DNA from: Hoeflea sp. BAL378
GTDB taxonomy: Bacteria; Pseudomonadota; Alphaproteobacteria; Rhizobiales; Rhizobiaceae
DNA: 32,671 nucleotides
Direction of reading: 5' to 3'
Assembly (NCBI RefSeq): GCF_000759435.1
Contig: NZ_JRJG01000049.1
Location: 1 to 32,671 of the forward strand
The notes below the pieces were generated by a model that was not told the DNA's origin, made no database searches, and was given only the letters and a program-made list of their open reading frames with translations. The translations under genes were made by a program, and so were the position numbers. Shown piece by piece: positions 11,593 to 29,723 of the stretch; within the stretch, counting starts at the first letter, position 1, and every line of letters begins with the position of its first letter.

Positions 11593-11665
11593 CCCGATGC
11601 GGCCCCATCGGCGGCCGGGCGAATGGCCCGCAATGCCTGGAATGATCGCTTGTGAAAGTAAACCA

Positions 11666-11695
11666 TTGACGTAGCAATGCACAGCCGCGTATCGT
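11666..11695 (+). promoter_or_regulatory. Candidate sigma70 promoter of the IclR gene
   Basis: TTGACG (11666-11671) and TATCGT (11690-11695) are 18 bases apart. The predicted transcription start would fall at about the ATG at 11702, implying a leaderless message if that start codon is used. Eye-based prediction. Confidence 0.4.
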
Positions 11696-11701
11696 TCGTC
11701 A

Positions 11702-12538: not shown

Positions 12539-12562
12539 CCCACCCTGACCAACAAGAACGAA

Positions 12563-12579
12563 GGCCGGACAAACCGGCC
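12563..12579. other. GC-rich hairpin between iclR and the transporter genes
   Basis: GGCCGG (12563-12568) and CCGGCC (12574-12579) form a perfect stem with a five-base loop, 24 bases after the regulator stop and 36 before the transporter start. No T-run follows; it may attenuate read-through or protect the downstream message. Confidence 0.4.
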
Positions 12580-12614
12580 CCTATTCCACTTCACCTCCTG
12601 AAAGGAACGTTCGA

Positions 12615-13652: not shown

Positions 13653-13681
13653 GACAGACCCCCAGGCCAAGGAGACGAGGC

Positions 13682-14515
13682 ATGTCCATTGAACCGATCG
13701 ATCTGAACAGCCCGGAACGGCGCCGCGATGCGAAGCTGATGATAGAGGGGCTGTCCAAGACCTATGGCGGCGGCGCCGATGCGGTGCAGGCGCTTCCACC
13801 GATCGACCTGTGCATTGGCCTGGGGGATTTTCTCTGCGTGGTCGGCCCGTCCGGCTGCGGCAAGAGCACCCTGCTCAACATCGTCGCCGGCTTCGAGCCG
13901 CCCACCAGCGGCCGCGCCGTGCTTGACGGTCGGGTCATCACCAGACCCGGCGCCGAACGCGGCGTGGTCTTCCAGCAGGGCGCGCTGTTCAACTGGCTCA
14001 CGACGCTGGAAAACGTGGCCTTCGGTCCCCGCGCCCGCGGCATTCCGGCGGCCGAGGCCCGCACCAGCGCGCAAGAGATGCTCGAGATGGTCGGGCTCGG
14101 CAGTTTCGCGCAGAAATACCCCTACCAGCTTTCGGGCGGCATGCAGCAGCGTGTCGGCATCGCCCGGGCGCTCGTCAACAATCCGGAGGTGCTGCTGATG
14201 GATGAGCCCTTCGCGGCGCTCGACCAGCAGACCCGGGAACTGCTGCAGGAAGAGGTGCGCCGCATCTGGCAGGAGACGGGAAAGACGGTGATGTGGATCA
14301 CCCATTCCATCGAGGAAGCGCTGTTTCTGGCAACCCACATCATCGTCATGTCGGCCCGGCCCGGACGCATCAAGGCCGCCTACCGCTCGCACTTCTCCGA
14401 AAATCCGGATCCGCTTGTCGGCGCGACGGCCGAGTTTACCGCCGCGCGCCGGGAAATCGTCGGCCTGTTGCGCGAGGAATCGCAAAAGGCGCGGCTCCAG
14501 GAGGAACTGGCATGA
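13682..14515 (+). CDS. TauB-type ABC transporter ATP-binding protein
   Basis: 277 residues, cytoplasmic. Walker A GPSGCGKST (55-63), Q-loop near VFQQG (96-100), ABC signature LSGGMQQR (150-157), Walker B LLMDEP (171-176) and the switch histidine in WITHS. It energises uptake with the preceding binding protein and the following permease, whose ATG overlaps its stop (ATGA). Belongs to the nitrate/sulfonate/taurine importer group. Confidence 0.93.
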   Translation: MSIEPIDLNSPERRRDAKLMIEGLSKTYGGGADAVQALPPIDLCIGLGDFLCVVGPSGCGKSTLLNIVAGFEPPTSGRAVLDGRVITRPGAERGVVFQQGALFNWLTTLENVAFGPRARGIPAAEARTSAQEMLEMVGLGSFAQKYPYQLSGGMQQRVGIARALVNNPEVLLMDEPFAALDQQTRELLQEEVRRIWQETGKTVMWITHSIEEALFLATHIIVMSARPGRIKAAYRSHFSENPDPLVGATAEFTAARREIVGLLREESQKARLQEELA

Positions 14516-15357
14516 GTGCGCGCGACGAGGTGCTGCAGGAGAGCGAAACCTATGACGCGGCCACGGTGGAAAGACGGGCCTCCCGGCGCGACCGCTGGCT
14601 GACGAGCACGACCTTCCTTGCGCTGTTTGCGCTGTGGTTCGCGGTCACCGGCTCCGGCCTCTGGCAGCCGCTGATCCGCCCGATCTTCCTGCCTTCGCCG
14701 GGCGCGGTGCTGCAGGCCTTCCTGAGCCTTGCCCAGCACGGCTATCAGGGCAACTCGCTGTGGCACCATATCGGCGTGAGCTTCTATCGCTTCGCGGTGG
14801 CCTTCTCCGCCTGCGTCGTCATCGGCGTGCCGCTCGGCCTTCTGATCGGCGCCAACCGCACGGTCCGGGCGCTTTTGGAGCCGCCGATCCAGGCGATCCG
14901 CCCGATCCCGAAACTGGCGCTGCTGCCCTTGTTCCTGATCTGGTTCGGCATCGGCAACACATCCAAGATCATCATCATCGCGGCGCCGGTGTTTCCGCTG
15001 ATGGTCATCGCCGCCATGCAGGCCGTCCGTTCGGTCAGCGACAAGAAGATCCAGGCCGCGCAATCGCTCGGCGCCTCGCGCTGGACCGTGTTCTCGCGGG
15101 TCATCCTGCCGGCCTGCCTGCCGGGCATCTTCACCGGCATCCGCATGTCGATCTCGATCGGTGTGACGATGCTGGTGGCGGCGGAACTAACGGCGACGTC
15201 AGACGGTATCGCCTGGATGTCGCTGACGGCGGCCGAGTTCCTGTCGACCGACGTGGTGCTCGTCGGCGTCGTGATCATGGCCGTGATGGGCTTCGGTCTC
15301 GACCGCGCGATCCGGGCGCTGGAGCTGCGCATCGTGCACTGGTCCGGCCGGGACTGA
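14512..15357 (+). CDS. TauC/SsuC-type ABC transporter permease
   Basis: 281 residues from the ATG at 14512, which overlaps the ATPase stop and has GGAGG within 12 bases upstream. After a charged N-terminus come about six membrane helices. The EAA-type coupling motif is at AAQSLGASRWTVFSRVILPACLPGI (residues about 183-207), as in the taurine/sulfonate permease family. It forms the membrane channel for the importer. A strong hairpin 20 bases after the stop closes the operon. Confidence 0.92.
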   Translation: MSARDEVLQESETYDAATVERRASRRDRWLTSTTFLALFALWFAVTGSGLWQPLIRPIFLPSPGAVLQAFLSLAQHGYQGNSLWHHIGVSFYRFAVAFSACVVIGVPLGLLIGANRTVRALLEPPIQAIRPIPKLALLPLFLIWFGIGNTSKIIIIAAPVFPLMVIAAMQAVRSVSDKKIQAAQSLGASRWTVFSRVILPACLPGIFTGIRMSISIGVTMLVAAELTATSDGIAWMSLTAAEFLSTDVVLVGVVIMAVMGFGLDRAIRALELRIVHWSGRD

Positions 15358-15565: not shown

Positions 15566-15784
15566 TCAAAGCGCCAGGATGGCTTCCACTTCAACCATGG
15601 CTCCCTTGGGGAGGGCGGCAACCTGGTAGCAGGCCCGCGCCGGGAAAGGCGCGGCAAAATGCTGGCCATAGACCTCATTCGCCGCACCGAACTCCCCAAG
15701 GTCGGTGAGCAGGACCGTCGTCTTGACGGTTCGGGAGAGATCGATCCCAGCCTCTGACGCGATGGCGCCGAAGTTCTTCAAGCA
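15566..15784 (-). pseudogene. Remnant of a RidA-family (enamine/imine deaminase) gene
   Basis: The last 72 codons match the C-terminal two thirds of RidA/YjgF proteins well ([20 protein letters not shown], then [32 protein letters not shown]). Upstream the homology stops. Bases 15785-15883 stay open in the same frame but give an Arg/Lys-rich run only loosely alignable, and another frame shows T-E-E-M-L after a stop, as if a frameshift and nonsense mutation destroyed the N-terminal part that includes the family's GPYSQA region. RidA removes reactive enamines made by PLP enzymes, so an intact copy would fit these amine pathways. It lies 127 bases downstream of the second amidase subunit gene, on the same strand. 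Confidence 0.7.
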
Positions 15785-15910
15785 TTTCTTCGGTTTATCC
15801 TTGATCCGCCGTCGCCGTCCCGGCGCCTCGACGGTTTGCGCCTGTCCGGGCGGCTTTCCCGCCCGGACTGTGCCTGGCTTCATTGATCGCGGCCGGGCGA
15901 CCGCACCCCG

Positions 15911-17620
15911 TTACCTTGGAGCCTGGCCGGCCCGATCTGTCGCCGTCGAGGCGCCTTTGGCGATGAAGCGGTCGAGGATGTTGCGCGTGATCATCTGCGT
16001 GTAGGGGTCGTCCCGCTTCAGGCCCATGACCCATTCACACGTCGCGGCGGTCAACACCTCTCCCCTGCCGAGCGTCATGTGCACCATCATGCCGGAGCCA
16101 TGCGCATATCGGTCGAGATCCGCCTGCGCGTGGCCGCCGGTGGCGGCCTTGACGAGGCCCCGGTGCTGGAAATCGCGCACGTAATAGCGGAACCCCTCGC
16201 CCACCGGTTCATCTTCCATCAGCAGCGCCGGCGCCATGGCGAGAATCTCAATCGACTCCGGAATGCCCGGTCCCGGAACGGGATAGGGAAAGCCGTGACG
16301 GAACGTGTAGTCGAGCCCGTCGACCTCATAGGCGAATATGCGGGCCTTCTCGCCGAACACATCGGCGTAATGCAGGCCGGTTCCTTCGAAAGCCCAGTGC
16401 TCCGGCCGGTAGACTGTGAAGCCCTTCTGGCCCCCCGGGGCGAACCCTCCCCAGGAGACACACATGCCGTGCATGCCGTTCACCCCGACAGTGGTTGCGC
16501 CAGGCCAGGCGATCGACTTGTCTTCCCAGGCCGTCGTGAGCGTGTGGGCCTGGTCGGTATTCCGGACAGGATCTTCCTCCGCGGCCGTGAACTTGTAGCA
16601 GACCTGCTGGGTGCCGTTGTTCTCGAGCCGCACCTGCCAGAGGAAGTTGGCGCCGAAGCGTGCGAGGTTGCCCCCCTTCTCGACATAGGCCTCCATGGTC
16701 AGGCGCATCTCGCGCGTCCAGTACTCGTCGTGGCCGACGATCACAACGCAGGAATAGTGATCCAGCAGCTCCGGCTGAAAGTGCAGGTCCGACTGCGTGA
16801 TAATGTCGAGCGTATAGCCTTCCCGTTCGGCCCAAACGACGAAATGGCGGTCGAACTGCGCCCAGCCTGCGGCCGCATAGAACTGCCCGAAGCCGTTCGC
16901 ATAGGCGAACTCCTTCATGGGATAGCGCGGCGCATCGCCCATTTCGGGCGTCGGGTCCGCACAGATACGGGGGGCTCCGGGCGGCAGCCAGACCATGCCA
17001 CGCGTCCAGGGGCGCTGGGTGCTGAGCACCGGCGAGTGCTTGTCCTTCTCCGGGCCGGCAGCACCGAAATAGTAGTTCGCACCACCCCAGTCGTTGTAGG
17101 CGATCCATGTGCTCGTCGGCAGGATGAGCAGCATCTGCGACCGCGGCCTGCGATCCGACGGACGCACGACGAAACAATGGTGCTGGACGAAGCGGCCGCC
17201 GCTGGGCCGGTCGCAAGTCGACACGACACGGTAGAAACCGGACTGGCTGTCGTCCGGAAGCGTCCACCGGAACGCCACCGGCCAGCCGCATCCATCTCGG
17301 AAACTCGCTTCCGGCACGGGATGGTGCACGCCCTTGATATCATGCTCTTCCATCACCGTGACGGGATCGGCGCCGTCCCTGTAGATCGTCATGGACCATG
17401 TTGCAGCCGTGGAACTTGCGTGAAACGCGATCTCGTCGCCGGCATCATAGGACATGGCGTCGGTATAGACGTGGACTTCCGGGAAGGCCGGATCGTCATG
17501 CGGCGCATCATACCAGGGATAGGCCTGCCACGAGTGATCGCCATGCATCGGCACGGTCCTGGCCGGGCGCCGGTTGAAGTCCCCCATTTCTGGCGGGATG
17601 AATGAAGATTTCTTTGCCAC
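15911..17620 (-). CDS. Second N,N-dimethylformamidase large-subunit-like protein
   Basis: 569 residues from a GTG start at 17620, five bases after the stop of the larger paralogue. It matches the catalytic C-terminal part of the dimethylformamidase large subunit (TWIAYNDWGGANYYF at 171-185, VGHDEYWTREM at 295-305, GGNLARFGANFLWQ at 316-329, and a C-terminal MMVHMTLGRGEV block). It lacks the LamG-like insertion of the 757-residue neighbour, which accounts for its shorter length. Y175 and E299 occupy the places of the first Tyr and the Glu of the family's 2-Tyr-1-Glu iron centre, but no Tyr is obvious at the middle ligand; RPW (W205) stands in that area. It could be a distinct amidase, a heteromeric partner, or inactive. 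No signal peptide is visible. Confidence 0.82.
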   Translation of the reverse strand: MAKKSSFIPPEMGDFNRRPARTVPMHGDHSWQAYPWYDAPHDDPAFPEVHVYTDAMSYDAGDEIAFHASSTAATWSMTIYRDGADPVTVMEEHDIKGVHHPVPEASFRDGCGWPVAFRWTLPDDSQSGFYRVVSTCDRPSGGRFVQHHCFVVRPSDRRPRSQMLLILPTSTWIAYNDWGGANYYFGAAGPEKDKHSPVLSTQRPWTRGMVWLPPGAPRICADPTPEMGDAPRYPMKEFAYANGFGQFYAAAGWAQFDRHFVVWAEREGYTLDIITQSDLHFQPELLDHYSCVVIVGHDEYWTREMRLTMEAYVEKGGNLARFGANFLWQVRLENNGTQQVCYKFTAAEEDPVRNTDQAHTLTTAWEDKSIAWPGATTVGVNGMHGMCVSWGGFAPGGQKGFTVYRPEHWAFEGTGLHYADVFGEKARIFAYEVDGLDYTFRHGFPYPVPGPGIPESIEILAMAPALLMEDEPVGEGFRYYVRDFQHRGLVKAATGGHAQADLDRYAHGSGMMVHMTLGRGEVLTAATCEWVMGLKRDDPYTQMITRNILDRFIAKGASTATDRAGQAPR

Positions 17621-17625
17621 GTTGC

Positions 17626-19899
17626 TTACCCGGGGATGTTGAACGGAGCGGGATCCAGAAAACGGTCTGTCACTCGCCGCGTGATGGTTCGGATATCGTT
17701 GTTGTAGTCGTTGTGACTGAGGGAAAGAGCGTAGGAGATCGATCCGGTCGAGAAGACGGCCCCGCCATTCGGCGTCTCGAAGAACACCATGTCGGCCCGC
17801 ACGAGGTTGTTCTGCTCGCCGTCCAGCCCGTGCGACATTGTCCTGATCTCCTCCAGCGTCGGCAGGGCACCAGGCCCGAGCCCATGGGAGGTGGCGATGA
17901 TCAGGGAATGCTCCGGCGTTCCGAGATCGAAATCCGCCCGGTCCGTCTCGATACCGACGGCGCCGCCGACGCGCGCCGCATAGTCGCCGATCGGCGTGTC
18001 GTCCGAAATGCCTTCCAGGATATAGGCCACGCGGGGATCCCGCGCATCCGGCGTGGTCATGTAGTAGCCGGCGTGGTCATAGACCGTCGCATCGAAGCCA
18101 ACGCCGACCAGGGCCTGGGGCGCGAAGCCGCTGTGCCGCCAGAGCGCGCCTGGCTCGCCCGTACCCGCCAGATGGACTTCGCCCGATTGCGACTCCCATG
18201 TGCGGGTGCCGGCCATTCCACGGCGAACTTCGAGCACCTGCGGCGCCTGGGGATGGAAGGCGCAGCGCCAGTAGAACGAGTTCGCGCCGAGGCAGAGATG
18301 CCGTCCGCCGGCATTCTGGTAGGCCATCAGCGCATTCATCATGTTGAGCGTGGAATACTCTTCATGGGTGGGCGTGATGATCGCCTGGTAGGGTTTGAGC
18401 GCGGCAAGACCCTTGCGGTCGATCTCGACGTCGGTAATCACGTCGTAGTCGATTCCCTCCTCCTCGAGCCAGTCAAGGATGTGGGTGTCGTGGACATAGT
18501 TGAAGGGATTGGCCCGCGGCCGCATGTTGAAGATCGGGCGCAGCCAGGAACTGTAGCAGCGTCCGGAGCCGTCGATGTGATTGTCGTAGGTGGAGTTGGC
18601 GAACTGGGGGTTTTCCGCCAGGTAGACCTCGTCGAGCGACAGTTGCACGGCGTGCTCGATCAGCCCCTGGAAATGCACATGTTGCATCCGCAGCGCGCTG
18701 TTGGCGTAGGCCAGGTAGGTCGCGACAGACGCAACCACCGCAAGCTTCGCGCGAGGCGAATGCTCGGCAGGGGTGATGAAGAAGGGAATGAAGGTTTCTG
18801 CGGCAACCGTTTCCGACGGAGCGGCTTCTGTGCCGGGAACCCTGAGCCGCAGCGCGTAGAATCCCGTCTTCCAGTTCTCCGGCACCGACAGCGTGAATGT
18901 CGGCTTCCAACCGCAATCGTAGAGATCATCGGAGTGAAAATGGATCGCTCCATACTCCTGCGGCGCAAGACGCCAATCATGCACCTTTCCGCTCCAGCAA
19001 ACGCCTGTCACGGCCCGGCGCGGCAATTGGTGCAGCCTCCCGTGCAGCGCATTGGTGGAAAGGTCGGTTACCGCCAGGGTGTCGATCCCGACCGAGAAAT
19101 CCCAGAAGGCGAGCAGGCTGGACTCGGCGCAACCTGTCCGCTGAGTGGGGTGAAGGGCACGCAGGTCGCTTGCCGGCATCGGCTTGGACACGATCCGGGC
19201 AGCTTCGATCTTGCCGTCGAAGAAGCCCGCATAAGCGCCCTGCTTCGGGCTGAGATGGTGGGCTCCGATCAGGAACGGCGTTCGGGAATCGAGCTCCGTC
19301 CCTGCCTCCACGGCGAAGGTCTCCGTCGTGAGACGCTCGGGGACGCAGCCCTCTGCAAGCTGCCACTGGCAAAGGGTGAGGACCCCGGTCCCCGCATCGA
19401 ACGAGGCCGAGACCCAGTGCCAACGGCGCTCCTTGAGCGGCTTTCCGGTCTTTGCGGTAAACGCGGTTCCCGATCCGGTGCCGAGCTTCATCGTCAGGCC
19501 GTCGGCCTTGCTGATGCCCAGCAAGTAGCCCTTGCCGTCGACCTCGGACCATCGCGACAGGATTGTCTGCGTTTCCGGGGTTATCCGCGTCGGCCAGATG
19601 TAGCATCCGATCGACCACGATCCGGCGAGGGACAGCGCGCTGCCGTCGTTGACGACAACAGCCGATCCGGGCACGACGGGCTGGTCGTGGCATGCGTGGA
19701 CGCCGGATATGGCCGACTCGACGATCTCGTATTTCAGGCCGGGCGCATCGACGTCGGCGCAGCGAAGCCTGACGACTGACACCTGGACCGCGCTCTCCTG
19801 CGAGCTGATGTGGAACGTCACGTCCTCACCCAGGGCGACGCTGATCGTGTCGGGATAGCCGAGGAACAGGTTGGTATTGATCGGGATCATCTTAGACAT
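17626..19899 (-). CDS. N,N-dimethylformamidase-like large (beta) subunit
   Basis: 757 residues, close to the roughly 760 of known dimethylformamidase beta subunits. Layout: N-terminal beta domain (1-90), LamG-like sandwich (about 95-280, with WSIGCYIWPT and WHWVSASFDAGTGVL), and a catalytic domain with a glutamine-amidotransferase-like fold (about 380-757). The family uses a mononuclear iron held by two Tyr and one Glu to hydrolyse formamides to formate and amine. Y398 (YLAYAN), Y438 (NSTYDN) and E514 (HEEY) fall almost exactly at the expected positions. The ATG at 19899 overlaps the stop of the small-subunit gene by eight bases. Substrate is open: the context lacks dimethylamine or methylamine dehydrogenases, so it need not be dimethylformamide. 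Confidence 0.88.
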   Translation of the reverse strand: MSKMIPINTNLFLGYPDTISVALGEDVTFHISSQESAVQVSVVRLRCADVDAPGLKYEIVESAISGVHACHDQPVVPGSAVVVNDGSALSLAGSWSIGCYIWPTRITPETQTILSRWSEVDGKGYLLGISKADGLTMKLGTGSGTAFTAKTGKPLKERRWHWVSASFDAGTGVLTLCQWQLAEGCVPERLTTETFAVEAGTELDSRTPFLIGAHHLSPKQGAYAGFFDGKIEAARIVSKPMPASDLRALHPTQRTGCAESSLLAFWDFSVGIDTLAVTDLSTNALHGRLHQLPRRAVTGVCWSGKVHDWRLAPQEYGAIHFHSDDLYDCGWKPTFTLSVPENWKTGFYALRLRVPGTEAAPSETVAAETFIPFFITPAEHSPRAKLAVVASVATYLAYANSALRMQHVHFQGLIEHAVQLSLDEVYLAENPQFANSTYDNHIDGSGRCYSSWLRPIFNMRPRANPFNYVHDTHILDWLEEEGIDYDVITDVEIDRKGLAALKPYQAIITPTHEEYSTLNMMNALMAYQNAGGRHLCLGANSFYWRCAFHPQAPQVLEVRRGMAGTRTWESQSGEVHLAGTGEPGALWRHSGFAPQALVGVGFDATVYDHAGYYMTTPDARDPRVAYILEGISDDTPIGDYAARVGGAVGIETDRADFDLGTPEHSLIIATSHGLGPGALPTLEEIRTMSHGLDGEQNNLVRADMVFFETPNGGAVFSTGSISYALSLSHNDYNNDIRTITRRVTDRFLDPAPFNIPG

Positions 19900-20221
19900 C
19901 GAGCTTGCTTCCTGAGATCTGCTGCCAGCGAAGCGTGAATATGTGCCGCTCGGCATCCGCGAGATTGTCGAATTCCACGTCCTCGAAGCGGACGACCTTC
20001 TGGCCTGGCGCCGCGGGAAGCCGGCCAAGCTGCCAGCGGCCCGGCCCCAGAACGATCAGCACATGGCGCCCGGCGACAGGCCCCCTGCGCATGAAGTTCA
20101 GCAGCTTCCAGAGATCGGGGCTGTAGGGTCCCATGGGATTGGCCAGGAATTCGCGGGCCAGATCCGTTCGCTTGCCGTCGAAGCTGAACTTGATCGCGTT
20201 CGGATCACTCGTGTGGTCCAT
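19892..20221 (-). CDS. N,N-dimethylformamidase-like small (alpha) subunit
   Basis: 109 residues. The central block LANPMGPYSPDLWKLLNFMRRGP, then HVLIVLGPGRWQLGRL, aligns with the small subunit of dimethylformamidase (HAANPFG...L..V.NYFRMQP, then YYIYSEREWDAYRIA), followed by an acidic stretch and a C-terminal helix. Known alpha subunits are about 130 residues; this one is shorter at the N-terminus. It overlaps the large-subunit start by eight bases, supporting an alpha-beta complex. It follows the transporter binding-protein gene by 63 bases containing a large hairpin. Confidence 0.78.
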   Translation of the reverse strand: MDHTSDPNAIKFSFDGKRTDLAREFLANPMGPYSPDLWKLLNFMRRGPVAGRHVLIVLGPGRWQLGRLPAAPGQKVVRFEDVEFDNLADAERHIFTLRWQQISGSKLDV

Positions 20222-20251
20222 GATAGTGGGTCTCGCGTTTGAGGTGATCGG

Positions 20252-20277
20252 CCGGGGCCGGCATGGGCCGGCCCCGG
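20252..20277. other. Perfect 11-bp hairpin between transporter and amidase genes
   Basis: CCGGGGCCGGC (20252-20262) and GCCGGCCCCGG (20267-20277) form a fully paired 11-base stem with a four-base loop, seven bases downstream of the binding-protein stop in the direction of transcription. There is no T-run. Such hairpins after a binding-protein gene usually stabilise its message and dampen expression of the genes beyond. Confidence 0.6.
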
Positions 20278-20284
20278 AGTGCGC

Positions 20285-21328
20285 TTACTGGGCGATCCAC
20301 TTGGTCCAGCGGTCGCGCAGTTCGGCCCGGTTCTTGCCGATCCATTCGAAATCGGGGACAACCATCTTGGCGAAGTTTTCCGGCGCCGTCGGATAGAGAA
20401 CCTGCTCTTCGGGCGGCAGCTTTTCGAGGCCGCCCCGGCTGGACGTGGCATAGTTCACCGCCCGCATGAACTCGGGATGGCCATCGGAATTGGCATAGAA
20501 GAAGTCGATGTATTTGAGTGCGGCCTCAAGGTTCGGCGCGTCCTTCATGATGGACATGATGCCGGCGTCGCGGATCGTATCTTCCCAGACCATCGCCCAC
20601 GGCTGTCCTTCGCGCACCGTCGCCAGGGCACGGCCTGAATAGCCGATGATCATCACGACTTCCTTGTTGCGCATGATCTGCTGCATTTGGTTGCCGGTCT
20701 TCCACCAGACCGCCACGTGCGGACGGATCTCGTCCAGCTTCTTGTAGGCCCGGTCGAGATCGAGCGGCCACAGGTCGGCGGGCTTGACGCCGTCCGCCAT
20801 CAAGGCGATGGCGGGCAGCCACCAGTCGCGGTCGCCGGTATCCGGTAGCCCGCGGCCCCCGGGAAACTTCTCGACATTCCAGAAGTCCGCCCAGTTCTTG
20901 GGACCCTCGGGAAACACTTCCGTGTCGTAGGCAATCATCTGCGCGCCGATCGTGCGGACGACGCCGTACGGCTCGCAGCTTCCCGGCAGTCCGTTCTTGA
21001 CGACATTGGGCAGCGCCGCGCAGTCGATCTCGTGAAGGATGTCCTTCTTCTCGATCAGATCGCCACCGGTGGCGGTGACGACGTCGTACTCCATCTTGCC
21101 GCTGCGGGCCATCGCCTCGGCTTTCGCCCACTGGTCGGGCACCTCGATGTCGACCGGCACGACCTCGATACCGGTGGCCTCGGTGAAGGGCTTGTACATG
21201 TTGGCCTCCAGCGAGTTTCGCATCAGGCCGCCGGTCGTGGCGATCACGACTTCGTCTGCGGTTGCCGGAAGGGCAGCGGTCACGGCGAGGATGCAGCCTG
21301 CCGCCAGAAGCATTCTTGGGTGTCTCAT
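20285..21328 (-). CDS. PotD-type ABC transporter substrate-binding protein
   Basis: 347 residues from the ATG at 21328 (AGGGGAG nine bases upstream). The Sec signal peptide has basic residues, a hydrophobic core and cleavage near ATA-DE (about residue 25). The mature part matches the PotD/PotF-like family (polyamines, and many other organic ligands): TTGGLMRNSLEANMYKPFTEATGI at the start, NWADFWNVEKFPGGRG and WKTGNQMQQIM later. It is the last of four transporter genes, separated from the permease gene by 135 bases with a small hairpin. The ligand is presumably the compound cleaved by the downstream amidase-like enzymes; spermidine itself is not implied. Confidence 0.88.
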   Translation of the reverse strand: MRHPRMLLAAGCILAVTAALPATADEVVIATTGGLMRNSLEANMYKPFTEATGIEVVPVDIEVPDQWAKAEAMARSGKMEYDVVTATGGDLIEKKDILHEIDCAALPNVVKNGLPGSCEPYGVVRTIGAQMIAYDTEVFPEGPKNWADFWNVEKFPGGRGLPDTGDRDWWLPAIALMADGVKPADLWPLDLDRAYKKLDEIRPHVAVWWKTGNQMQQIMRNKEVVMIIGYSGRALATVREGQPWAMVWEDTIRDAGIMSIMKDAPNLEAALKYIDFFYANSDGHPEFMRAVNYATSSRGGLEKLPPEEQVLYPTAPENFAKMVVPDFEWIGKNRAELRDRWTKWIAQ

Positions 21329-21463: not shown

Positions 21464-22273
21464 CTATTTCATCTCGTCAAACCGAGGCATGGTGCGGTTC
21501 TCCGCCGCTTTGCGAAGGGCAGCGGCTCCAATCAGGATGAGGACGGATATCCCGGTCAGCAGGACTGCGATGGCCGGGATGATGGGCGTGAGGTTCTGCT
21601 CGATATCGTCGAACATCATGCGCGGCAGTGTCTTGTCGCGAATGCCTGCCAGGAAGAAGGTGACGACGGGCTCATCGAACGAGATGATGAAGCCGAAGAG
21701 CGCCGCCGAGACGACATTGGGCAGGATGAGCGGGAGGGTGACCAGGCGAAACGCCTGGAACCGTGTGGCGCCGCAGCTCATCGCCGCATCCTCGAGTGCC
21801 GGGTCGACGCTGAGCAGGGCAGCCGAGACCGTGAAGACGACGAAGGGAAGCGCCAGCACCGTGTGAGCAATGATGTAGCCCGCGAGCGTTCCGCTCAGGC
21901 CGACCCGCTCGAAGAAGAGATAGAGGGCGACGGCAAGCGCCACGTGCGGCACGACAATCGGCCCGATCAGCAACGCCTGGAACAGGGAGCCGAGCGCCCC
22001 GGCGCCGCGCACCAGCGCGTAGCTCGCCATCGTGCCGATCACCGTGGATGCAATCGCAGTCGCCACCGCGATCTGGAAACTGAACTGAAGGGCCTGCATC
22101 CAGAGGCGATCGGAAAAAAATCTCCCGAACCAGTCGAACGTGAAGCCCTTCGGCGGGAAGACAAGATACTCCGTCTCGCTGAACGCCATGGGCAATATGA
22201 TCAGGATCGGGACCAGGATGAACACCAGGACGGCGTAGACATAGGCGTTGAGTATCAGCGTGCGCCCGTTCAT
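21464..22273 (-). CDS. PotC-type ABC transporter permease
   Basis: 269 residues with six predicted membrane helices. The coupling-loop motif AAMSCGATRFQAFRLVTLP (about 168-186) is typical of the PotC half of polyamine-type importers. The ATG at 22273 overlaps the stop of the other permease (ATGA), showing tight coupling. It pairs with that permease to form the inner-membrane channel. Confidence 0.92.
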   Translation of the reverse strand: MNGRTLILNAYVYAVLVFILVPILIILPMAFSETEYLVFPPKGFTFDWFGRFFSDRLWMQALQFSFQIAVATAIASTVIGTMASYALVRGAGALGSLFQALLIGPIVVPHVALAVALYLFFERVGLSGTLAGYIIAHTVLALPFVVFTVSAALLSVDPALEDAAMSCGATRFQAFRLVTLPLILPNVVSAALFGFIISFDEPVVTFFLAGIRDKTLPRMMFDDIEQNLTPIIPAIAVLLTGISVLILIGAAALRKAAENRTMPRFDEMK

Positions 22274-23184
22274 TCGTGTGCCCCCATCATGCGATCGAAG
22301 CGAAAGACCCGGCTGAAGGCGAGGGTTATCGCGGTCACCAAGAGGCTCAGCACGCCGACCAGCGCCGCCGCGAACGGCCAGTCGAGGAATTCCCGCAACT
22401 GCTGCGAGATCAGCGTGGAGATGGTCATCTCCTGGGGCGAGCCGAGAAGTGCGGGCGTGATGAAGTAGCCGAGAGACGACAGGAAAACGAGGATGAAACC
22501 CGCGACAATGCCTGGCATGGCAAGCGGCAGCGTCACCTCCCAGAAGGATCGATTGGGGCCGGCGCCGCAGATCGCCGCCGCGCGTCCGAGTTCGACGGGA
22601 ATGTTACGGAGCGCGCCATAGATCGGCAGCACCATGAACGGCATCAGGACATGGCTCATGGCGACGATGACCGCCCCTTGCGTGTACAAAAGCTTGACCG
22701 GCGCATCGATTATGCCGACGGCCTGCAGCCCCTGGTTGATGAGGCCATTGCGCTGGAGCAGCACCGACCATGCCGCGGTTCTGACGAGCACCGAAGACCA
22801 GAAGGGCAGCAGGATGCAGGCGGTGATGAAGGCCAGCTTCGGTCCGCGAGACCGCGCCATCAGCAGGGCGACAGGCAGGGCCAGCATCAGCGACAGGATG
22901 CTGACGAGCAATGCCAGTCTCAGGGTTCTGAGAAGGACGGTCGCATAGATGGGATTCTCGAATATCCGGACGTAGTTGGTGATGCCCGGCTCGGGTTCCT
23001 GCACCGAAATCAGCAGCAGGCTCAGGAGGGGATAGAGGAAGGCCACAAAAATCAGCGCGAAGAACGGCAGCATGAGAAAGACGATCGCCGCCTGGGACAG
23101 CTTTCTGCCGCTGGCCTCGAAGAAGCGCACCGGTTGCGGGTGCACTGCCAGGTCTGGGGCGGATGAGGCTGAGATCTTCTGCAT
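22270..23184 (-). CDS. PotB-type ABC transporter permease
   Basis: 304 residues from the ATG at 23184, which shares one base with the ATPase stop (TGATG). A cytoplasmic N-terminal stretch of about 30 residues precedes six membrane helices; the coupling motif AAAICGAGPNRSFWEVTLP lies near residues 209-227. It is the first-listed permease of the PotABCD-type importer and overlaps the second permease at its 3' end. Confidence 0.92.
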   Translation of the reverse strand: MQKISASSAPDLAVHPQPVRFFEASGRKLSQAAIVFLMLPFFALIFVAFLYPLLSLLLISVQEPEPGITNYVRIFENPIYATVLLRTLRLALLVSILSLMLALPVALLMARSRGPKLAFITACILLPFWSSVLVRTAAWSVLLQRNGLINQGLQAVGIIDAPVKLLYTQGAVIVAMSHVLMPFMVLPIYGALRNIPVELGRAAAICGAGPNRSFWEVTLPLAMPGIVAGFILVFLSSLGYFITPALLGSPQEMTISTLISQQLREFLDWPFAAALVGVLSLLVTAITLAFSRVFRFDRMMGAHE

Positions 23185-24528: not shown

Positions 24529-24566
24529 AATATCAGATAGCGAAATCCAACATGAGAGGGTTTTAC

Positions 24567-25808
24567 ATGCATGCTGCGCCTTCACCGTCGCGCGCCTCAA
24601 TCGACCAGGCGCTGCGGGAGAGATCTCAGGTCGTCATCCCGGGCGGTATGTGGGGCCACCAGCGAGCGGCTGCGGTTCCGGCAGGGTTTCCGCAGTTTTT
24701 CATGAGCGGGAACGGCGCCACGGTGCGCGACGTCGATGGCCGGGACTACATCGACTTCATGTGCAGTTGGGGACCGATCATCCTCGGCCATCGCCATCCC
24801 GGGGTAGAAGAGGCGGTTCGCAGGCAGCTCGAGCTGGGCGAATGCTTCGACGGCCCGACTGAAAACGCCGTCGTCTTGGCCGAGACCCTGGTCGGGATGA
24901 TCCCGCATGCGTCGTGGGCGCTCTTTCAGAAGAATGGCAGCGACGCGATGACATCGTGCGTGACGATCGCGCGCGCCTTCACAGGACGCAGAAAGGTCCT
25001 GGTCGCCAAGGACGCCTATCATGGCGCCGTCCCCTGGTGCTCGCCGTCCCTGGTCGGAGTAACCAGCGAGGATCGCGCGCACATCATCCACTTCACGTTC
25101 AACGATACGCGCAGCCTGGAGGCCGCTGCGGCACAGGCCGGAGACGATCTCGCCGCCGTCATCGTCTCCGGATTCAAGCACGATATCGGACGAACCCAGG
25201 AATTGCCGGAGCCTGAATTCGCGAAGGCCGCGCGCGCCCTTTGCGACCAGGCGGGCGCAGCCTTGATCGTCGACGATGTCCGGGCGGGATTCCGCCTCGA
25301 CCTCGGCGGCAGTTGGGAATTGACGGGCGTCAGGCCTGACCTGTCAGCCTATTCGAAGGCGATTGCGAACGGTCACGCCCTTTCCGCGGTGGCCGGCAAT
25401 GACAGGTTTCGTGAAGCCGCGGCCCGGATTTTCGTGACCGGGTCGTTCTGGTACGGCGGCGCCGCGATGGCGGCATCGATCGCGACGCTGAACGAACTGA
25501 AGCGCCTGGAGGCGCCACGTTTTCTCAAGCGCGCAGGCACGCGTTTTGCGAATGGACTCCGGGAACAGGCGCAGCGCCATGGTTTTCAGCTCAACATATC
25601 GGGGCCACCCGCCATGCCGGTCATGCTGTTTGAAGACGATCCCGATGCCGCAATCGGGGAGATCTTCTGCCTGGAGGCGTTGAAGCGCGGCGTCTATCTC
25701 CACCACCGGCACAACATGTTCCTCTCCCTTGCGCACACCGACGAGGTGATCGATCGGGCCCTGGACGGCACCGAAGGCGCTTTCGCGGCGCTCGCAGGAC
25801 GTCGATAG
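24567..25808 (+). CDS. Class III aminotransferase / aminomutase (GSAM-like)
   Basis: 413 residues from the ATG at 24567, preferred over the ATG at 24552 because GAGAGGG sits six bases before it. The fold and motifs resemble glutamate-1-semialdehyde 2,1-aminomutase: DGRDYIDFMCSWGPIILGH near 57-75, FQKNGSDAM (N and S contacts to PLP phosphate), D in IVDDVRAGFR and the Schiff-base lysine in AYSKAIANGHALSAV. The location in a catabolic cluster argues against heme synthesis; it probably moves an amino group on an amino-sugar-like or amino-acid substrate. First gene of a plus-strand operon whose promoter carries the putative GntR operator; a 426-base gap separates it from the kinase gene. Confidence 0.88.
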   Translation: MHAAPSPSRASIDQALRERSQVVIPGGMWGHQRAAAVPAGFPQFFMSGNGATVRDVDGRDYIDFMCSWGPIILGHRHPGVEEAVRRQLELGECFDGPTENAVVLAETLVGMIPHASWALFQKNGSDAMTSCVTIARAFTGRRKVLVAKDAYHGAVPWCSPSLVGVTSEDRAHIIHFTFNDTRSLEAAAAQAGDDLAAVIVSGFKHDIGRTQELPEPEFAKAARALCDQAGAALIVDDVRAGFRLDLGGSWELTGVRPDLSAYSKAIANGHALSAVAGNDRFREAAARIFVTGSFWYGGAAMAASIATLNELKRLEAPRFLKRAGTRFANGLREQAQRHGFQLNISGPPAMPVMLFEDDPDAAIGEIFCLEALKRGVYLHHRHNMFLSLAHTDEVIDRALDGTEGAFAALAGRR

Positions 25809-26234
25809 CCATGCCCCGTCCGCAAGCGAGTGCGGCGCGCTGCTCGTTTCCCCGGATCGATGCCCGTGAGGGCATCATACGCACAGGCGGGGATCGCCTG
25901 CGCCGCCTTCACGGGAGTCGACGCCTGCCTGAAGCCGGCGGGAGGATTGCCGATCTTCGCGACGGTGCTCTTGGGGCATTCCTTCTCGGCTGCCTTTCTT
26001 CTGCCGATCCGGTCTCAGCGAGAGCGATGGGAGGACGTCTGGATCATCGAGCGCGCCCTCCTCTTTCATGCAAGGGCGGCCCACACCGCACGCGCAGGGC
26101 CAGCGACCACGAATGCGCCATTCAACTCAACGCAGCTCGCCTGGGGCACGGTCCGGCGTCCGAGATTGTCGCGGAAGGCCGTGACGGAGCCGCCCGAACC
26201 CCATTGACCCACCGCTTTTGAGGAGCCGCTCCGG
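25809..26234. other. Gap between aminotransferase and kinase genes
   Basis: 426 bases with open frames on both strands but no recognisable protein family, no good ribosome sites and an Arg/Ala/Gly-rich translation. It may be a decayed gene, in line with the remnants elsewhere in this region. I see no promoter or terminator with confidence. Confidence 0.4.
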
Positions 26235-27524
26235 ATGAGTCTCGTGTTTGCCGCCGTTGCCGACGACCTGACGGGCGGCCTGGAAATGGCAGCCATGCTC
26301 GTGGCGGCCGGCATCGATTGCGCTTTGGTGACGGAAGCCGAAGCAGTCGACGATCTTGACGATGTCGAGGCCGTCGTCGTCGCGCAGAAGACCAGGGTCA
26401 CGCCCGCGGACGAGGCGGTGGCAAAGATGGAGGCCGCGGCCGATCGCCTCCTGAAACGGGGGGCGCGGACGATCTTCTTCAAGTACTGCGCGACGTTCGA
26501 TTCGACCGACAAGGGGAACATCGGGCCGGTCTCGGACGCGCTGATGCAGTTGACAGGGGCACCCTACACCGCGTTCTGCCCTGCCTCGCCGGATCTCGGG
26601 CGAACCGTCTACAACGGCCATCTCTTCGTCGGTCGCGACCTGGTTTCGAACTCACCGAAGAGGTTCGACCCCCTCACGCCGATGACCGACCCTGATCTGA
26701 TTGCGGTGCTTCAACGGCAGACCCGGCACAAGGTGGGACTGTTGGAGCGGGCGGCTATAGCGCGCGGCGGCGATGCCCTGCGGGCTGCCGTCGATGGCCT
26801 CGAGCGCCAGGGATTGCGCTATTTCATCGCCGACACCATCGAGAATGCCGACCTGCACGCTCTTGCCGAACTCACGGTCGACTGGAAGCTGATGACCGGC
26901 AATGCGACCATCGTGCGGTTCTACCCCGAGGTCTGGCGGGAGCGGGGCTACATTTCCACGGAGCCGCGCCATCGCCCGCTGCCCGCCGTCGGCGGCTATG
27001 GCGTGGTGCTGTCGGGAAGTTGCGCTGAGCGCACCCTCGAACAGTTGAAGCACTTCGAACGGTCGCATCCGGTCTTGTGGCTGGACCTGACGGCGCCCGT
27101 CAGCGCTGAAGCGCTGATCGATCAAGCGTTCACATGGGTGCAGCCTCTTCTCCAAAGCGGCAGCGCAGCGATCGCCACTTCGGCCGCACCGGAGACGGTC
27201 AAGGCGGCGCAGGCCCGGCATGGCCGCGAAGGCGCTGCCGCGCTCGCCGAACAGGTCATGGGGACGCTCGCGGCGCGGCTGCGCGACATCGGCGTGCGCC
27301 GCTTTGTCGTGGCGGGAGGCGAGACGTCGGGGTCGGTGATTGAAAGCCTGAAGGTCAGGCGCCTTACGGTCGGACCCTATGGAGGGCCGGGGGTAGGCCA
27401 CGCGACGTTCGGCACCGACGACCCGATCGCGGTGTGTCTGAAATCGGGAAAACTTGGCCCTGTCGACCTTTTCGAGACGTCTCTCGCGTCGATGCAGCTT
27501 GGAAGTGGATCACAGGATGAGTGA
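26235..27524 (+). CDS. otnK: Four-carbon acid sugar kinase (OtnK-type, 3-oxo-tetronate kinase)
   Basis: 429 residues of the DUF1537 kinase family. Substrate-domain motifs ADDLTGG (9-15) and KYCATFDSTDKGNIGPVSDAL (about 83-103), and nucleotide-domain motifs VVLSGSCAERT and VAGGETSGSV (about 357-366), are all intact. Characterised members phosphorylate 3-oxo-tetronates (from threonate or erythronate) at O4. The ATG follows GAGGAG by nine bases. The OtnC-type gene overlaps its stop by eight bases, the standard kinase-decarboxylase pair of tetronate catabolism. The usual tetronate dehydrogenase partner is missing; an AroE-like dehydrogenase stands in its place, so the acid may be different. Confidence 0.88.
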   Translation: MSLVFAAVADDLTGGLEMAAMLVAAGIDCALVTEAEAVDDLDDVEAVVVAQKTRVTPADEAVAKMEAAADRLLKRGARTIFFKYCATFDSTDKGNIGPVSDALMQLTGAPYTAFCPASPDLGRTVYNGHLFVGRDLVSNSPKRFDPLTPMTDPDLIAVLQRQTRHKVGLLERAAIARGGDALRAAVDGLERQGLRYFIADTIENADLHALAELTVDWKLMTGNATIVRFYPEVWRERGYISTEPRHRPLPAVGGYGVVLSGSCAERTLEQLKHFERSHPVLWLDLTAPVSAEALIDQAFTWVQPLLQSGSAAIATSAAPETVKAAQARHGREGAAALAEQVMGTLAARLRDIGVRRFVVAGGETSGSVIESLKVRRLTVGPYGGPGVGHATFGTDDPIAVCLKSGKLGPVDLFETSLASMQLGSGSQDE

Positions 27525-28188
27525 CGACAGACACGAGCGGGAACTGCGGCAGGCGCTCCTGGAAACCGTGAGGCGCCTGGAGGAGAAAGGCTACAATCAC
27601 GGCAGCAGCGGAAATGTCAGCGTTCGCCTGGGCGAGGACATTCTGATAACCCCCACCGGCGCACACTCGGCCAATCTGACCGCGGAGCGCATGGTTCGTC
27701 TGCGGCGCGACGGATCGCAGGTCGGTGACGGCATCCCCTCCAGCGAGTGGCACATGCATCTGTCGATCATGCGAGCCAGGCCCGAGGTCAACGCGCTGAT
27801 CCACACCCATGCCGATTGTTGCGTGGCTCTGTCGTGCCTGGGCAAGCCGATACCCGCCTTCCATTACATGATCGCCGGCTTCGGCGGAAACGATATTCCC
27901 TGCGCCTCCTATGCCACGTTCGGCACGCCTGAGCTGGCCGAAAGCGCCATTGCCGCCCTGTCGGACCGCAAGGGCTGTCTTCTGGCCAATCATGGAATGA
28001 TCGTGGTGGGCCAGGATCTCGCAGCGGCCTTCAGTCTCGCCGTGAAGATGGAAACCCTTGCCCGCCAGTACATACTCGCCTGCCAGGCGGGGACGCCGGA
28101 AATCATCCGGGATGAAGAGATGCAGCGGGTGAAGATGCAGTATGCCGGCTACGGCAAGGCTCGCCTCCCGCAGCCCGGAGCGCGCTGA
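27517..28188 (+). CDS. otnC: Class II aldolase-family decarboxylase (OtnC-type)
   Basis: 223 residues of the class II aldolase/adducin fold. Zinc ligands H96 and H98 (HTHAD) and H159 (ANHG) and acidic residue E77 (SEWHMH) are visible, and the phosphate-binding GSSGNVSVR (29-37) is intact. OtnC enzymes decarboxylate 3-oxo-tetronate 4-phosphate to dihydroxyacetone phosphate; other relatives are fuculose- or ribulose-phosphate aldolases. It overlaps the kinase gene by eight bases, with the dehydrogenase gene one base after its stop, so all three are co-expressed. Confidence 0.88.
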   Translation: MSDDRHERELRQALLETVRRLEEKGYNHGSSGNVSVRLGEDILITPTGAHSANLTAERMVRLRRDGSQVGDGIPSSEWHMHLSIMRARPEVNALIHTHADCCVALSCLGKPIPAFHYMIAGFGGNDIPCASYATFGTPELAESAIAALSDRKGCLLANHGMIVVGQDLAAAFSLAVKMETLARQYILACQAGTPEIIRDEEMQRVKMQYAGYGKARLPQPGAR

Positions 28189-28189
28189 G

Positions 28190-28999
28190 ATGAGCGACGT
28201 GACGGGGCGCACCCGGATCATGTTTATCCTCGCGGATCCGGTGCAGCATGTCAGGGGCTCCGCGTTCCTCAACGCGCATTTCCGCGCCCATGCCATCGAC
28301 GCGGTGTGCGCGCCGCTTCACGTGGCGCCGGCCGACCTCGAGACAGCGGTCGCCGCCATCCGTCATACGCAAAACCTGTCCGGATTTGGCTGCACGATTC
28401 CGCACAAGGTGGCGATCGTTCCTCTTCTGGATCGCGTGACCGACCGCGCACGGACGATCGGGGCCGTGAATTTCGTCAAGCGCATGCCGGACGGAACGCT
28501 GGTCGGCGACAATCTGGACGCCGCGGGGTTCATCGGCGCTCTCCATGCGAAGGGCCTGAGCGCGCGCGGGAAGCGCGTTCTGCAGATCGGCGCCGGCGGC
28601 GCGGGGCGTGCGACCGCTTTCGCGCTGTCGCAGGATGGCGCCCGCCGGATCATCATCCACAACCGCGACATCCGGAAGGCCGAGCAACTGGCGATGGATC
28701 TGCGTGCCGCCAACCCCGATGTCGATGCGCAAGCGGGCCTGGGCGCGGCGGAGGATTTCGATCTTGTGGTGAACGCCACTTCGCTGGGGCTGAAGCCGGA
28801 GGACGCGCTTCCCGTCGACGTGTCGCGCGTGGGCAAGGGCATCGTCGTCTACGACATCATAGCCAATCCACCCGTGACGAAGCTGCTGGCCGAGGCCGGG
28901 CGACGGGGCGCGACCACGATCGGGGGCGGCGCGATGCTGGACGAACAGATGTCGCTCGTGACCGAATTCGTGTTCGGGGAGCAAGGGAATGCCTGCTGA
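28190..28999 (+). CDS. Shikimate-dehydrogenase-like NAD(P) oxidoreductase
   Basis: 269 residues of the AroE/YdiB superfamily. The catalytic lysine K73 (CTIPHK), the aspartate D110 (GDNLDAAG), N94 and a nucleotide loop GAGGAGRA (134-141) are present. However, the N-terminal substrate loop, normally HSxSP, reads HVRGS, so the two serines that bind the shikimate carboxylate are Val and Gly. The protein therefore likely oxidises or reduces a related small hydroxy/oxo compound and not shikimate. Placement directly behind the OtnK/OtnC-type pair suggests it feeds or drains that pathway. The next gene is convergent, seven bases beyond its stop. Confidence 0.86.
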   Translation: MSDVTGRTRIMFILADPVQHVRGSAFLNAHFRAHAIDAVCAPLHVAPADLETAVAAIRHTQNLSGFGCTIPHKVAIVPLLDRVTDRARTIGAVNFVKRMPDGTLVGDNLDAAGFIGALHAKGLSARGKRVLQIGAGGAGRATAFALSQDGARRIIIHNRDIRKAEQLAMDLRAANPDVDAQAGLGAAEDFDLVVNATSLGLKPEDALPVDVSRVGKGIVVYDIIANPPVTKLLAEAGRRGATTIGGGAMLDEQMSLVTEFVFGEQGNAC

Positions 29000-29006
29000 G
29001 GCTGTC

Positions 29007-29723
29007 TTACGTTGCGACCGGCGCGTTCTGCGTCCCGCCATATTTCTCAAGGACGCGGATCAGGTTCTGGCCGCCTTCGATCATGTCGGCCTGGATTGCC
29101 TCCCGGACCTTGTCGGCCCGACGCTGGCGCAAAAACTCGATCACCCTGAGATGCTGATGGACGCCTGGATAGGTGGGCGGGGCATCTGGGTAATGAAGGT
29201 TCAGAAGCGGGCCGTTCCGCATCCAGATGTCGTCCAGGATGGCGAGAACCTCCGGCAGCCCGGAGCCTTCGTAGAGAGTGTGGTGGAATTGCCAGTTGGC
29301 GCGGACGGCGTCCGACCAGCGCCCTTCGGTTTCGGCGAGGACCAGCTCTTGATGCAGGTCGGCGAGCTTGTCGATCGCGGTTTCCGAGATCTTCGTCGTC
29401 GCGTGTTCGGCGGCAAGGCCCTCAAGAAAGAGCCGGACCGTCCGCAGTTCGATATATTGCTTCGCGGTCATGTGCGCGACGATGATGGAGCGCCCCGCCT
29501 GCAGTTCCAGCGCTCGCCCTCGCACGAGCTGCATGAGCGCCTCGCGGACCGGCGTCTCCGATACATTGAGCGCGGCCGCGAGTTCACGGATCTTGAACCG
29601 GTGTCCCGGGAAGAACCGTCCTTCCATGAGAGCAAGGCGCAGATTGCCGTAGACAACCTCGGTCAGGCTGTCGCGGGCGGCGATGGGAGACACGCCTGTG
29701 AAGTCAGGTTGGCGGGCGGACAT
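29007..29723 (-). CDS. GntR-family (FadR/FCD subgroup) transcriptional repressor
   Basis: 238 residues. Winged helix-turn-helix at about 20-88 (LVSEVxY-like start, then IRELAAALNVSETPVREAL), followed by an all-helical FCD effector domain (about 95-225) with the metal/ligand histidines in the FHHTLY, H-x-x-L and H-x-x-I contexts. The ATG at 29723 has AGAGG about a dozen bases upstream. It lies convergent to the catabolic operon and divergent from the split transketolase genes. ATATATC palindromes in its own promoter and in two others in this window make it the probable local regulator, released by a pathway intermediate. Confidence 0.92.
   Translation of the reverse strand: MSARQPDFTGVSPIAARDSLTEVVYGNLRLALMEGRFFPGHRFKIRELAAALNVSETPVREALMQLVRGRALELQAGRSIIVAHMTAKQYIELRTVRLFLEGLAAEHATTKISETAIDKLADLHQELVLAETEGRWSDAVRANWQFHHTLYEGSGLPEVLAILDDIWMRNGPLLNLHYPDAPPTYPGVHQHLRVIEFLRQRRADKVREAIQADMIEGGQNLIRVLEKYGGTQNAPVAT

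What the first reader, a model, noticed from the sequence alone, without database searches (positions are those of the whole stretch)
15911..21328. Dimethylformamidase-like alpha and beta subunits inside a PotABCD-type transporter operon
The small subunit, a full-length large subunit with the predicted Tyr398/Tyr438/Glu514 iron ligands, and a second large-subunit paralogue follow directly after a polyamine-type importer. No dimethylamine or methylamine dehydrogenase lies nearby, so the amide cleaved is probably not dimethylformamide. This looks like a self-contained import-and-hydrolyse system for an undescribed amide or formamide, linked through shared operators to an aminotransferase/kinase/aldolase route.
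Basis: partly seen in the sequence, partly recalled or inferred. Interest (0 to 1): 0.75.

Follow-up and report, generated by a model that had tools for sequence, protein, structure and literature searches.

The report
Iron amidase feeding an amino-alcohol pathway
This bacterium carries a co-regulated gene set that seems to import an acylated amino-alcohol, cut off the acyl group with a relative of the solvent-degrading enzyme dimethylformamidase, and break the freed amine down to a central sugar phosphate; this suggests that such iron amidases often work on natural amides rather than on the solvent.

Summary
At 15911-21328 (minus strand) lie a full-length dimethylformamidase (DMFase)-type large subunit with all three iron ligands (Y398, Y438, E514) and the catalytic His, its small subunit, and a shorter paralogue, directly after an opine/polyamine-type ABC importer. 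One correction: the shorter paralogue lacks one iron-ligand tyrosine.

In the four closest intact relatives the amidase lies with an aminotransferase related to fumonisin aminotransferase FumI, a 3-oxotetronate-type kinase and a fuculose-phosphate-type aldolase; two of them also have a split transketolase. A 13-base operator word occurs exactly twice in the 5.5-Mb genome, both copies between the divergent importer/amidase and aminotransferase operons; its core recurs before matching operons elsewhere. In a tree, FumI-linked amidases and a set linked to D-serine-dehydratase-like enzymes lie together, apart from true DMFase.

Best reading: an N-deacylase for acylated vicinal amino alcohols. The freed amine becomes an alpha-hydroxyketone, which is phosphorylated and cleaved to DHAP. 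Substrate and activity are unproven. In some rhizobial relatives the amidase small subunit is fused to the importer permease, which supports coupling of import and hydrolysis.

The parts
15911..17620 (-). DMF2: short DMFase-type paralogue (569 aa), one iron ligand missing
   Evidence: PF20254 241 bits; Y175, H297, E299, N325 kept, no Tyr at the Y440 position; follows the large subunit in L046, L050, L068 (67-71%) and L003 (93%)
17626..19899 (-). DMFL: DMFase-type large subunit (757 aa), three iron ligands present
19892..20221 (-). DMFS: small subunit (109 aa), overlaps the large-subunit start
20285..21328 (-). substrate-binding protein of the importer (ORF to 21370, likely ATG 21328)
   Evidence: SBP_bac_8 118 bits; PDB best annotated mannopine SBP 5l9s, 175 bits
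21464..22273 (-). importer permease
   Evidence: PF00528
22270..23304 (-). importer permease (ORF start uncertain)
   Evidence: PF00528
23184..24290 (-). importer ATPase with TOBE domain
   Evidence: PF00005, PF08402
24356..24369 (+). operator copy 1, TGATATATCAAATA
   Evidence: 13-base word with two copies in the genome
24519..24532 (+). operator copy 2, CGATATATCAAATA
24552..25808 (+). FumI-like class III aminotransferase
   Evidence: 6hbs aminopentol aminotransferase 401 bits, next best 183
26235..27524 (+). 3-oxotetronate-type kinase
   Evidence: NF043035 408 bits, cut-off 350; PDB relatives 5dmh, HI1011
27517..28188 (+). class II aldolase, fuculose-1-phosphate type (ATG chosen by eye; ORF from 27454)
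   Evidence: PF00596; FucA 168 bits; below NCBIfam cut-offs
28142..28999 (+). AroE-like dehydrogenase (true start probably later)
   Evidence: Shikimate_dh_N; 5-ketofructose reductase 130 bits, second best
29007..29723 (-). GntR/FCD regulator, candidate operator-binding protein
   Evidence: PF07729, PF00392; 79% in L050, 77% in L068
30185..31060 (+). transketolase N-terminal subunit (start inferred; ORF from 29792)
   Evidence: PF00456; 56% relative beside FumI in L094
31063..32043 (+). transketolase C-terminal subunit
   Evidence: PF02779, PF02780; 53% relative in L094

Best explanation
The genes form a catabolic regulon for an N-acylated vicinal amino alcohol. Step 1 (inferred): the ABC importer takes up the N-acyl compound. 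Step 2 (inferred from homology and intact ligands): the DMFase-type two-subunit enzyme, with Fe(III) held by Tyr398, Tyr438 and Glu514 and assisted by His512, hydrolyses the amide and releases the free amine. Step 3 (inferred): the FumI-like aminotransferase turns the carbon bearing the amine, next to a hydroxyl, into a ketone, giving an alpha-hydroxyketone, most simply HOCH2-C(=O)-CHOH-R. Step 4 (inferred): the 3-oxotetronate-type kinase phosphorylates the CH2OH next to the ketone and the fuculose-phosphate-type aldolase cleaves the product to DHAP plus an aldehyde; in some relatives, and in the window, a split transketolase is near, which needs the same HOCH2-C(=O)-CHOH unit. A GntR/FCD regulator probably controls the set through the TGATATATCA operator. 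The most economical substrate class is an N-acyl 2-amino-2-deoxypolyol; chain, stereochemistry and acyl group are unknown. The roles of DMF2 and of the AroE-like enzyme are open.
For: Intact ligands and catalytic His. FumI, kinase, aldolase, AroE-like, importer, DMFS, DMFL and DMF2 together in G364 (L046), G143 (L050) and Rhizobium sp. SSA_523 (L068); partial sets in G419 (L047) and G858 (L052). Amidase-signature and penicillin-acylase enzymes stand beside or in place of the iron amidase near FumI in Pseudoroseomonas and Variovorax, and the window's own genome has a second FumI-kinase-aldolase locus with Opp importer and no amidase found: the amidase therefore looks like an entry step that feeds FumI. 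Transketolase near FumI in L068, L081, L094. Operator core in front of kinase, importer and aminotransferase units; the 13-base word only twice in the own genome. Tree: 9 FumI-linked and 5 D-serine-dehydratase-linked amidases plus L053 form one 15-row side, 100/100, DmfA2 on the other side; FumI acts on an amine next to a hydroxyl (PMC2933618, passages), and so do D-serine-dehydratase-type enzymes (family knowledge). The aldolase aligns to FucA over its whole length.
Against: No substrate, product or activity was shown. The aldolase is below the curated cut-offs of FucA (199.6 of 264) and of the 3-oxotetronate-phosphate decarboxylase (116.7 of 250), so decarboxylation of a tetronate-like acid is not excluded. 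FumI-anchored loci are mixed: of 15 examined besides the window, 11 have at least one of amide hydrolase, kinase plus aldolase, or transketolase, 1 (L083) has only an Opp importer, and 3 (L089, L091, L092) have none. The operator (up to 1 mismatch) is absent from L053, L070 and L088, which belong to the clade or carry FumI. The window's transketolase site is at chance level. One relative of the clade (L053) has no FumI in the stretch seen, only on another contig.
Confidence: 0.55

Rival explanations
1. A true DMF or formamide degradation operon: DMF or a small formamide is hydrolysed and the amine oxidised elsewhere.
For: Same family, same ligands, nearly the same score to DMFase as to the acylase.
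Against: The recurring partners are aminotransferase, kinase, aldolase and importer; no PF11927 hit in the genome; PF02975 also none, but that search had no working control; other amine-oxidising routes were not searched; DmfA2 lies on the other side of the tree; the Phe described as restricting larger amides is not at the aligned position (loop alignment uncertain).
Confidence: 0.05
2. The amide is an N-acyl beta-amino acid (for example of the 3-amino-2,4-dihydroxybutanoate type): deacylation, transamination to 3-oxotetronate, then kinase and decarboxylating aldolase to DHAP.
For: Best solved relative is an N-acetyl-beta-phenylalanine acylase; the kinase passes the 3-oxotetronate kinase cut-off; beta-amino-acid transaminases are in the same aminotransferase list.
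Against: The aldolase scores higher with fuculose aldolase (199.6) than with the 3-oxotetronate-phosphate decarboxylase (116.7); FumI outscores beta-transaminase by far (401 against 112 bits).
Confidence: 0.2
3. The substrate is a long-chain base derivative (N-acyl phytosphingosine-like); FumI relatives act on sphingoid-like bases.
For: FumI acts on hydrolysed fumonisin, a sphingoid-base-like amine (passages); a Novosphingobium cluster pairs FumI with a PfkB kinase, class II aldolases, P450 and aldehyde dehydrogenase.
Against: Importers with periplasmic binding proteins of this and the Opp class serve water-soluble solutes (family knowledge); the solved relatives of the binding protein are named as opine, polyamine and GABA binders.
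Confidence: 0.1
4. Neighbouring operons without functional link; the linkage is chance or shared ancestry.
For: Three of 15 FumI-anchored loci have none of the partners.
Against: Order and strand differ between L046, L047, L050, L068 and the window while content is kept, and the operator core sits before separate units.
Confidence: 0.1

Closest known systems
N,N-dimethylformamidase DmfA1/DmfA2 (Paracoccus; PDB 6lvb)
   Same: small plus large subunit, LamG-like (pentraxin) domain, three iron ligands, catalytic His
   Different: 34.4% identity to the pAMI2 enzyme, other side of the tree, importer and FumI-type pathway beside it, pocket Phe not at the aligned position
N-acetyl-(R)-beta-phenylalanine acylase (PDB 8huy, 8i59, 8i5a)
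   Same: best PDB match over nearly full length, 417 bits
   Different: name says an aryl beta-amino-acid product; no paper on it found in the held library
FumI aminopentol aminotransferase of Sphingopyxis (PDB 6hbs; PMC2933618)
   Same: 401 bits over 396 residues
   Different: the fumonisin cluster has no DMFase-type amidase as far as I recall
3-oxotetronate pathway (OtnK kinase with class II aldolase-like decarboxylase)
   Same: kinase passes the NCBIfam equivalog cut-off
   Different: aldolase is nearer to fuculose-phosphate aldolase; an aminotransferase stands where a dehydrogenase is usual (recalled)

Membership tests
DMFase-type iron amidase (large subunit) | PF20254 domain over curated cut-off | tested here: met
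   292 bits against 27
DMFase-type iron amidase (large subunit) | 2-Tyr-1-Glu iron ligands and catalytic His | tested here: met
   Y398, Y438, E514, H512 by alignment; the metal itself is not testable here
DMFase-type iron amidase (large subunit) | small subunit encoded directly upstream | tested here: met
DMFase proper | hydrolyses DMF | not testable with these tools
   no assay; on the other side of the tree from DmfA2
DMFase-type iron amidase (DMF2) | 2-Tyr-1-Glu iron ligands | tested here: not met
   no Tyr at the Y440 position in 10 of 10 members aligned
PotABCD polyamine importer | PotD equivalog model | tested here: not met
   NF007048 37.7 bits, cut-off 582
FumI aminopentol aminotransferase | closer in sequence to FumI than to HemL | tested here: met
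   401 against 183 bits
FumI aminopentol aminotransferase | deaminates hydrolysed fumonisin | not testable with these tools
   no assay
3-oxotetronate kinase | NF043035 over cut-off | tested here: met
   408.3 against 350
L-fuculose-phosphate aldolase | NCBIfam cut-off | tested here: not met
   PRK08087 199.6 of 264; fucA 183.1 of 400.25
Shikimate dehydrogenase | NCBIfam cut-off | tested here: not met
   best model 170.3 of 252; aroE 161.2 of 200.2

The most novel reading that the evidence does not exclude
An undescribed catabolic route in which a 2-Tyr-1-Glu iron amidase N-deacylates imported N-acyl amino-polyols, a FumI-like aminotransferase makes a ketose, and kinase plus aldolase or transketolase cleave it; with a sister route through D-serine-dehydratase-like enzymes and sugar-acid aldolases; and in some rhizobial plasmids the amidase small subunit is welded to the importer permease, so that import and hydrolysis are physically coupled.
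Probability: 0.35. Interest if true: 0.78.

Novelty: new variant of a known kind. Interest (0 to 1): 0.62.

Why it matters
DMF was introduced only in 1893 (PMC7686228), so what DMFases evolved from is an open question. The partners found here (FumI-like aminotransferase, D-serine-dehydratase-like enzymes, importers of Pot, Opp, Liv and, by annotation, PAAT kind) suggest that members of this iron-amidase family release amines from natural N-acyl amino alcohols or amino acids, and they name the genes with which to test it. The permease-small-subunit fusion would be an unusual case of an importer wired to the enzyme that handles its cargo.

Tried and rejected
DMF catabolism: considered and judged unlikely (see rivals). 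A scan of named genomes gave one locus only, Oricola nitratireducens, where the large subunit is truncated behind an integrase-type transposase. Search for papers on the beta-phenylalanine acylase: none held. Searches for N-acetylglucosaminate, for DMFase with transporter and amidase, and for two of kinase, class III aminotransferase and transketolase: none. The stretch 25811-26221 between FumI and the kinase has no family hit and no convincing reading. Transketolase promoter as a third operator: rejected as chance-level. AroE-anchored search of 372 class genomes: 9 with a match, the own genome among them; the other 8 not followed. FumI-anchored loci L089, L091 and L092 have none of the partners.
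Full report
1. What is there. The window is a whole contig (C49) of a 5.48-Mb genome in 281 contigs. On the minus strand run: importer ATPase 23184-24290, permeases 22270-23304 and 21464-22273, binding protein 20285-21328, small subunit 19892-20221, large subunit 17626-19899, short paralogue 15911-17620. On the plus strand, divergently: FumI-like aminotransferase 24552-25808, kinase 26235-27524, class II aldolase to 28188, AroE-like dehydrogenase 28142-28999; then a GntR/FCD regulator (minus) and a split transketolase.

2. Is the DMFase reading sound? The large subunit matches PF20254 and a LamG-like domain, and over nearly its full length both N-acetyl-(R)-beta-phenylalanine acylase (417 bits) and DMFase (410 bits) of the PDB. 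Paracoccus DMFase has ligands Y399, Y440, E521 and essential H519 (PMC7686228, parts 1 and 2 of 3 read). Aligned with DmfA2 of Paracoccus aminophilus, the window enzyme has Y398, Y438, E514, H512, and N540 for N547. The small subunit has no family hit alone, but a profile of it and 15 relatives finds DmfA1 at E 6e-9, 32 bits, among 1520 sequences of a local set.

3. The second paralogue. It keeps Y175, H297, E299 and N325, but no Tyr stands at the Y440 position in 10 of 10 members aligned; which residue aligns there is uncertain (F or W; W, V or R). Its site is not the published 2-Tyr-1-Glu site. It is nevertheless strongly conserved (67-71% in L046, L050, L068; 93% in Oricola L003), more than the large subunit in the first three (56-63%). 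Its role is open.

4. Is the set a unit? Large-subunit relatives were found in 56 of 297 genomes of the order at E <= 1e-50, in 17 of 394 of the family and 38 of 385 of the class at E <= 1e-140 (the samples overlap and include the window's own genome), and in 74 plasmid records at 1e-40. Around the nearest ones the neighbours recur: FumI, kinase, aldolase, AroE-like, importer, small and large subunit and DMF2 in L046 (G364), L050 (G143) and L068 (Rhizobium sp. SSA_523); kinase-aldolase-AroE-FumI-small-large with Opp importers in L047 (G419); importer-GntR-binding protein-small-large-FumI in L052 (G858). L068 and L094 (the rest of the G364 locus) also carry a transketolase pair. Order and strand differ, content is kept.

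5. Operators. A 13-base word, GATATATCAAATA, occurs twice in the divergent region and nowhere else in 5.48 Mb; the same word read backwards occurs 0 times. Its core TGATATATCA, exact, is in 9 of 104 loci, one of them the window's own: in front of kinase, importer ATPase and FumI in L050, kinase and FumI in L068, between FumI and kinase in L046, kinase in L047, FumI in L081, and in front of units of the sister set in L051, L054 and L069 (positions by comparing). With one mismatch it is also before the importer in L046, L052 and L068, and beside the transketolase in L094. Against: of the 16 sources scanned with one mismatch, 5 have none, among them L053, L070 and the own second FumI locus L088. 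The candidate binder is the GntR/FCD protein, 79% and 77% identical in L050 and L068, but no binding was tested. The site before the window's transketolase has two mismatches; the count of such sites in the window, 6, was reached by 7 of 100 shuffles.

6. Partner logic. Loci with FumI as bait: of 14 plasmid records I looked at 8, and of 7 genome matches besides the window at all 7. Of these 15, 7 have an amide hydrolase of the DMFase, amidase-signature or penicillin-acylase kind within the stretch (L052, L068, L080, L081, L084, L090, L093, the last a 32% match to DMF2), 5 have kinase plus class II aldolase (L068, L079, L080, L082, L088), 1 more a PfkB kinase plus class II aldolase (L085), 2 a split transketolase (L068, L081), 1 only an Opp importer (L083), and 3 none of these (L089, L091, L092). 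The own genome has a second FumI (56%) with Opp importer, kinase and aldolase, no amidase found (L088). This suggests that the amidase is an entry step that frees the amine used by FumI. FumI removes the 2-amino group next to the 3-hydroxyl of hydrolysed fumonisin (PMC2933618, passages). Kinase plus aldolase, and transketolase, both suit a ketone flanked by CH2OH and CHOH (family knowledge), so the amine is most simply HOCH2-CH(NH2)-CHOH-R.

7. A sister set. Five large subunits (L047b, L049, L051, L054, L069) lie beside D-serine-dehydratase-like proteins and Opp importers; four of the five have a short-chain dehydrogenase in the stretch, and various members SMP-30 lactonase, HpaI or KDPG aldolase, aldehyde dehydrogenase and RidA. 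This looks like breakdown of an N-acyl amino-sugar acid (inference). In a tree of 29 rows, the 9 FumI-linked, these 5, and L053 (whose genome G955 has FumI on another contig) form one side with 100/100 support; Paracoccus DmfA2 is among the 14 others. Rows were chosen by likeness to the window enzyme and the root is a midpoint, so this is neither a census nor a rooted clade.

8. Importers. A same-strand importer gene lies within 1.5 kb of the large subunit in 15 of 26 loci scored with my own small library of Opp, Pot, Liv and Tau proteins. On the 15-row side it is 14 of 15 (L080 fails; L047b and the window counted by hand). On the other side it is 3 of the 12 scored; by annotation L102 has an amino-acid importer upstream and L071 none. 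The twenty-sixth locus, L048, holds only a gene end. No background rate of importer genes was measured.

9. Fusion. In Agrobacterium tumefaciens pAt the second Liv permease (551 aa; PF02653 at 132-395) ends in a small-subunit domain (466-547, 49.8 bits), followed by the large subunit. The protein matches over at least 80% of its length in 26 of 26 plasmid records found: 19 at 99% or more, 5 at 95-99%, and Aminobacter at 59.5% and Ensifer at 56.5%. The linker is 78% and 69% identical in the last two, and a large subunit follows in both. So it is no artefact of one record. It is not in the window; it supports coupling of import and hydrolysis in the wider family.

10. DMF itself. No PF11927 hit in the genome (the control rang in 1 of 14 genomes); PF02975 none, but its control was silent. 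A second Paracoccus dmfA locus is already reported as not linked to DMF use (PMC4543880, passages). Of the 13 held papers that contain 'dimethylformamidase' I read one in two of three parts and two by passages; what I saw does not describe this set. That it is not in print is claimed only for the searches.

11. Verdict. Observation confirmed with one correction; interpretation partly supported and extended. Substrate and activity unproven.

Noticed in passing
L072:8278-9933, L103:7001-8656, L104:6995-8653: Liv-type permease with the DMFase small-subunit domain fused to its C-terminus, large subunit in the next gene.
   Followed up: partly
15566-15883: RidA-family ORF lacking its N-terminal part (profile 38-118 of 121): probably a remnant.
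   Followed up: no
11702-15357: IclR regulator and a TauABC/NMT1-like importer, convergent on the amidase operon, with a class III aminotransferase at 10237-11877; link to the finding untested.
   Followed up: no
L088 (G000:C38:151500-171400): Second FumI-kinase-aldolase locus with Opp importer in the same genome, no amidase found.
   Followed up: partly
L003:8874-12451: In Oricola nitratireducens the large subunit is truncated behind an integrase-core transposase while DMF2 (93%) is open over residues 1-557 of the window's 569.
   Followed up: partly
L051, L049, L054, L069, L047-L048: Sister set: iron amidase with D-serine-dehydratase-like enzymes, aldolases and often SMP-30 lactonase; exact operator core in L051, L054, L069. 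Suggestive of N-acyl amino-sugar acids.
   Followed up: partly
25811-26221: About 420 bases between FumI and the kinase with no recognisable gene.
   Followed up: partly
912-3395: COX1 ORF of 827 aa, longer than the COX1 domain (32-477): possible COX1-COX3 fusion.
   Followed up: no
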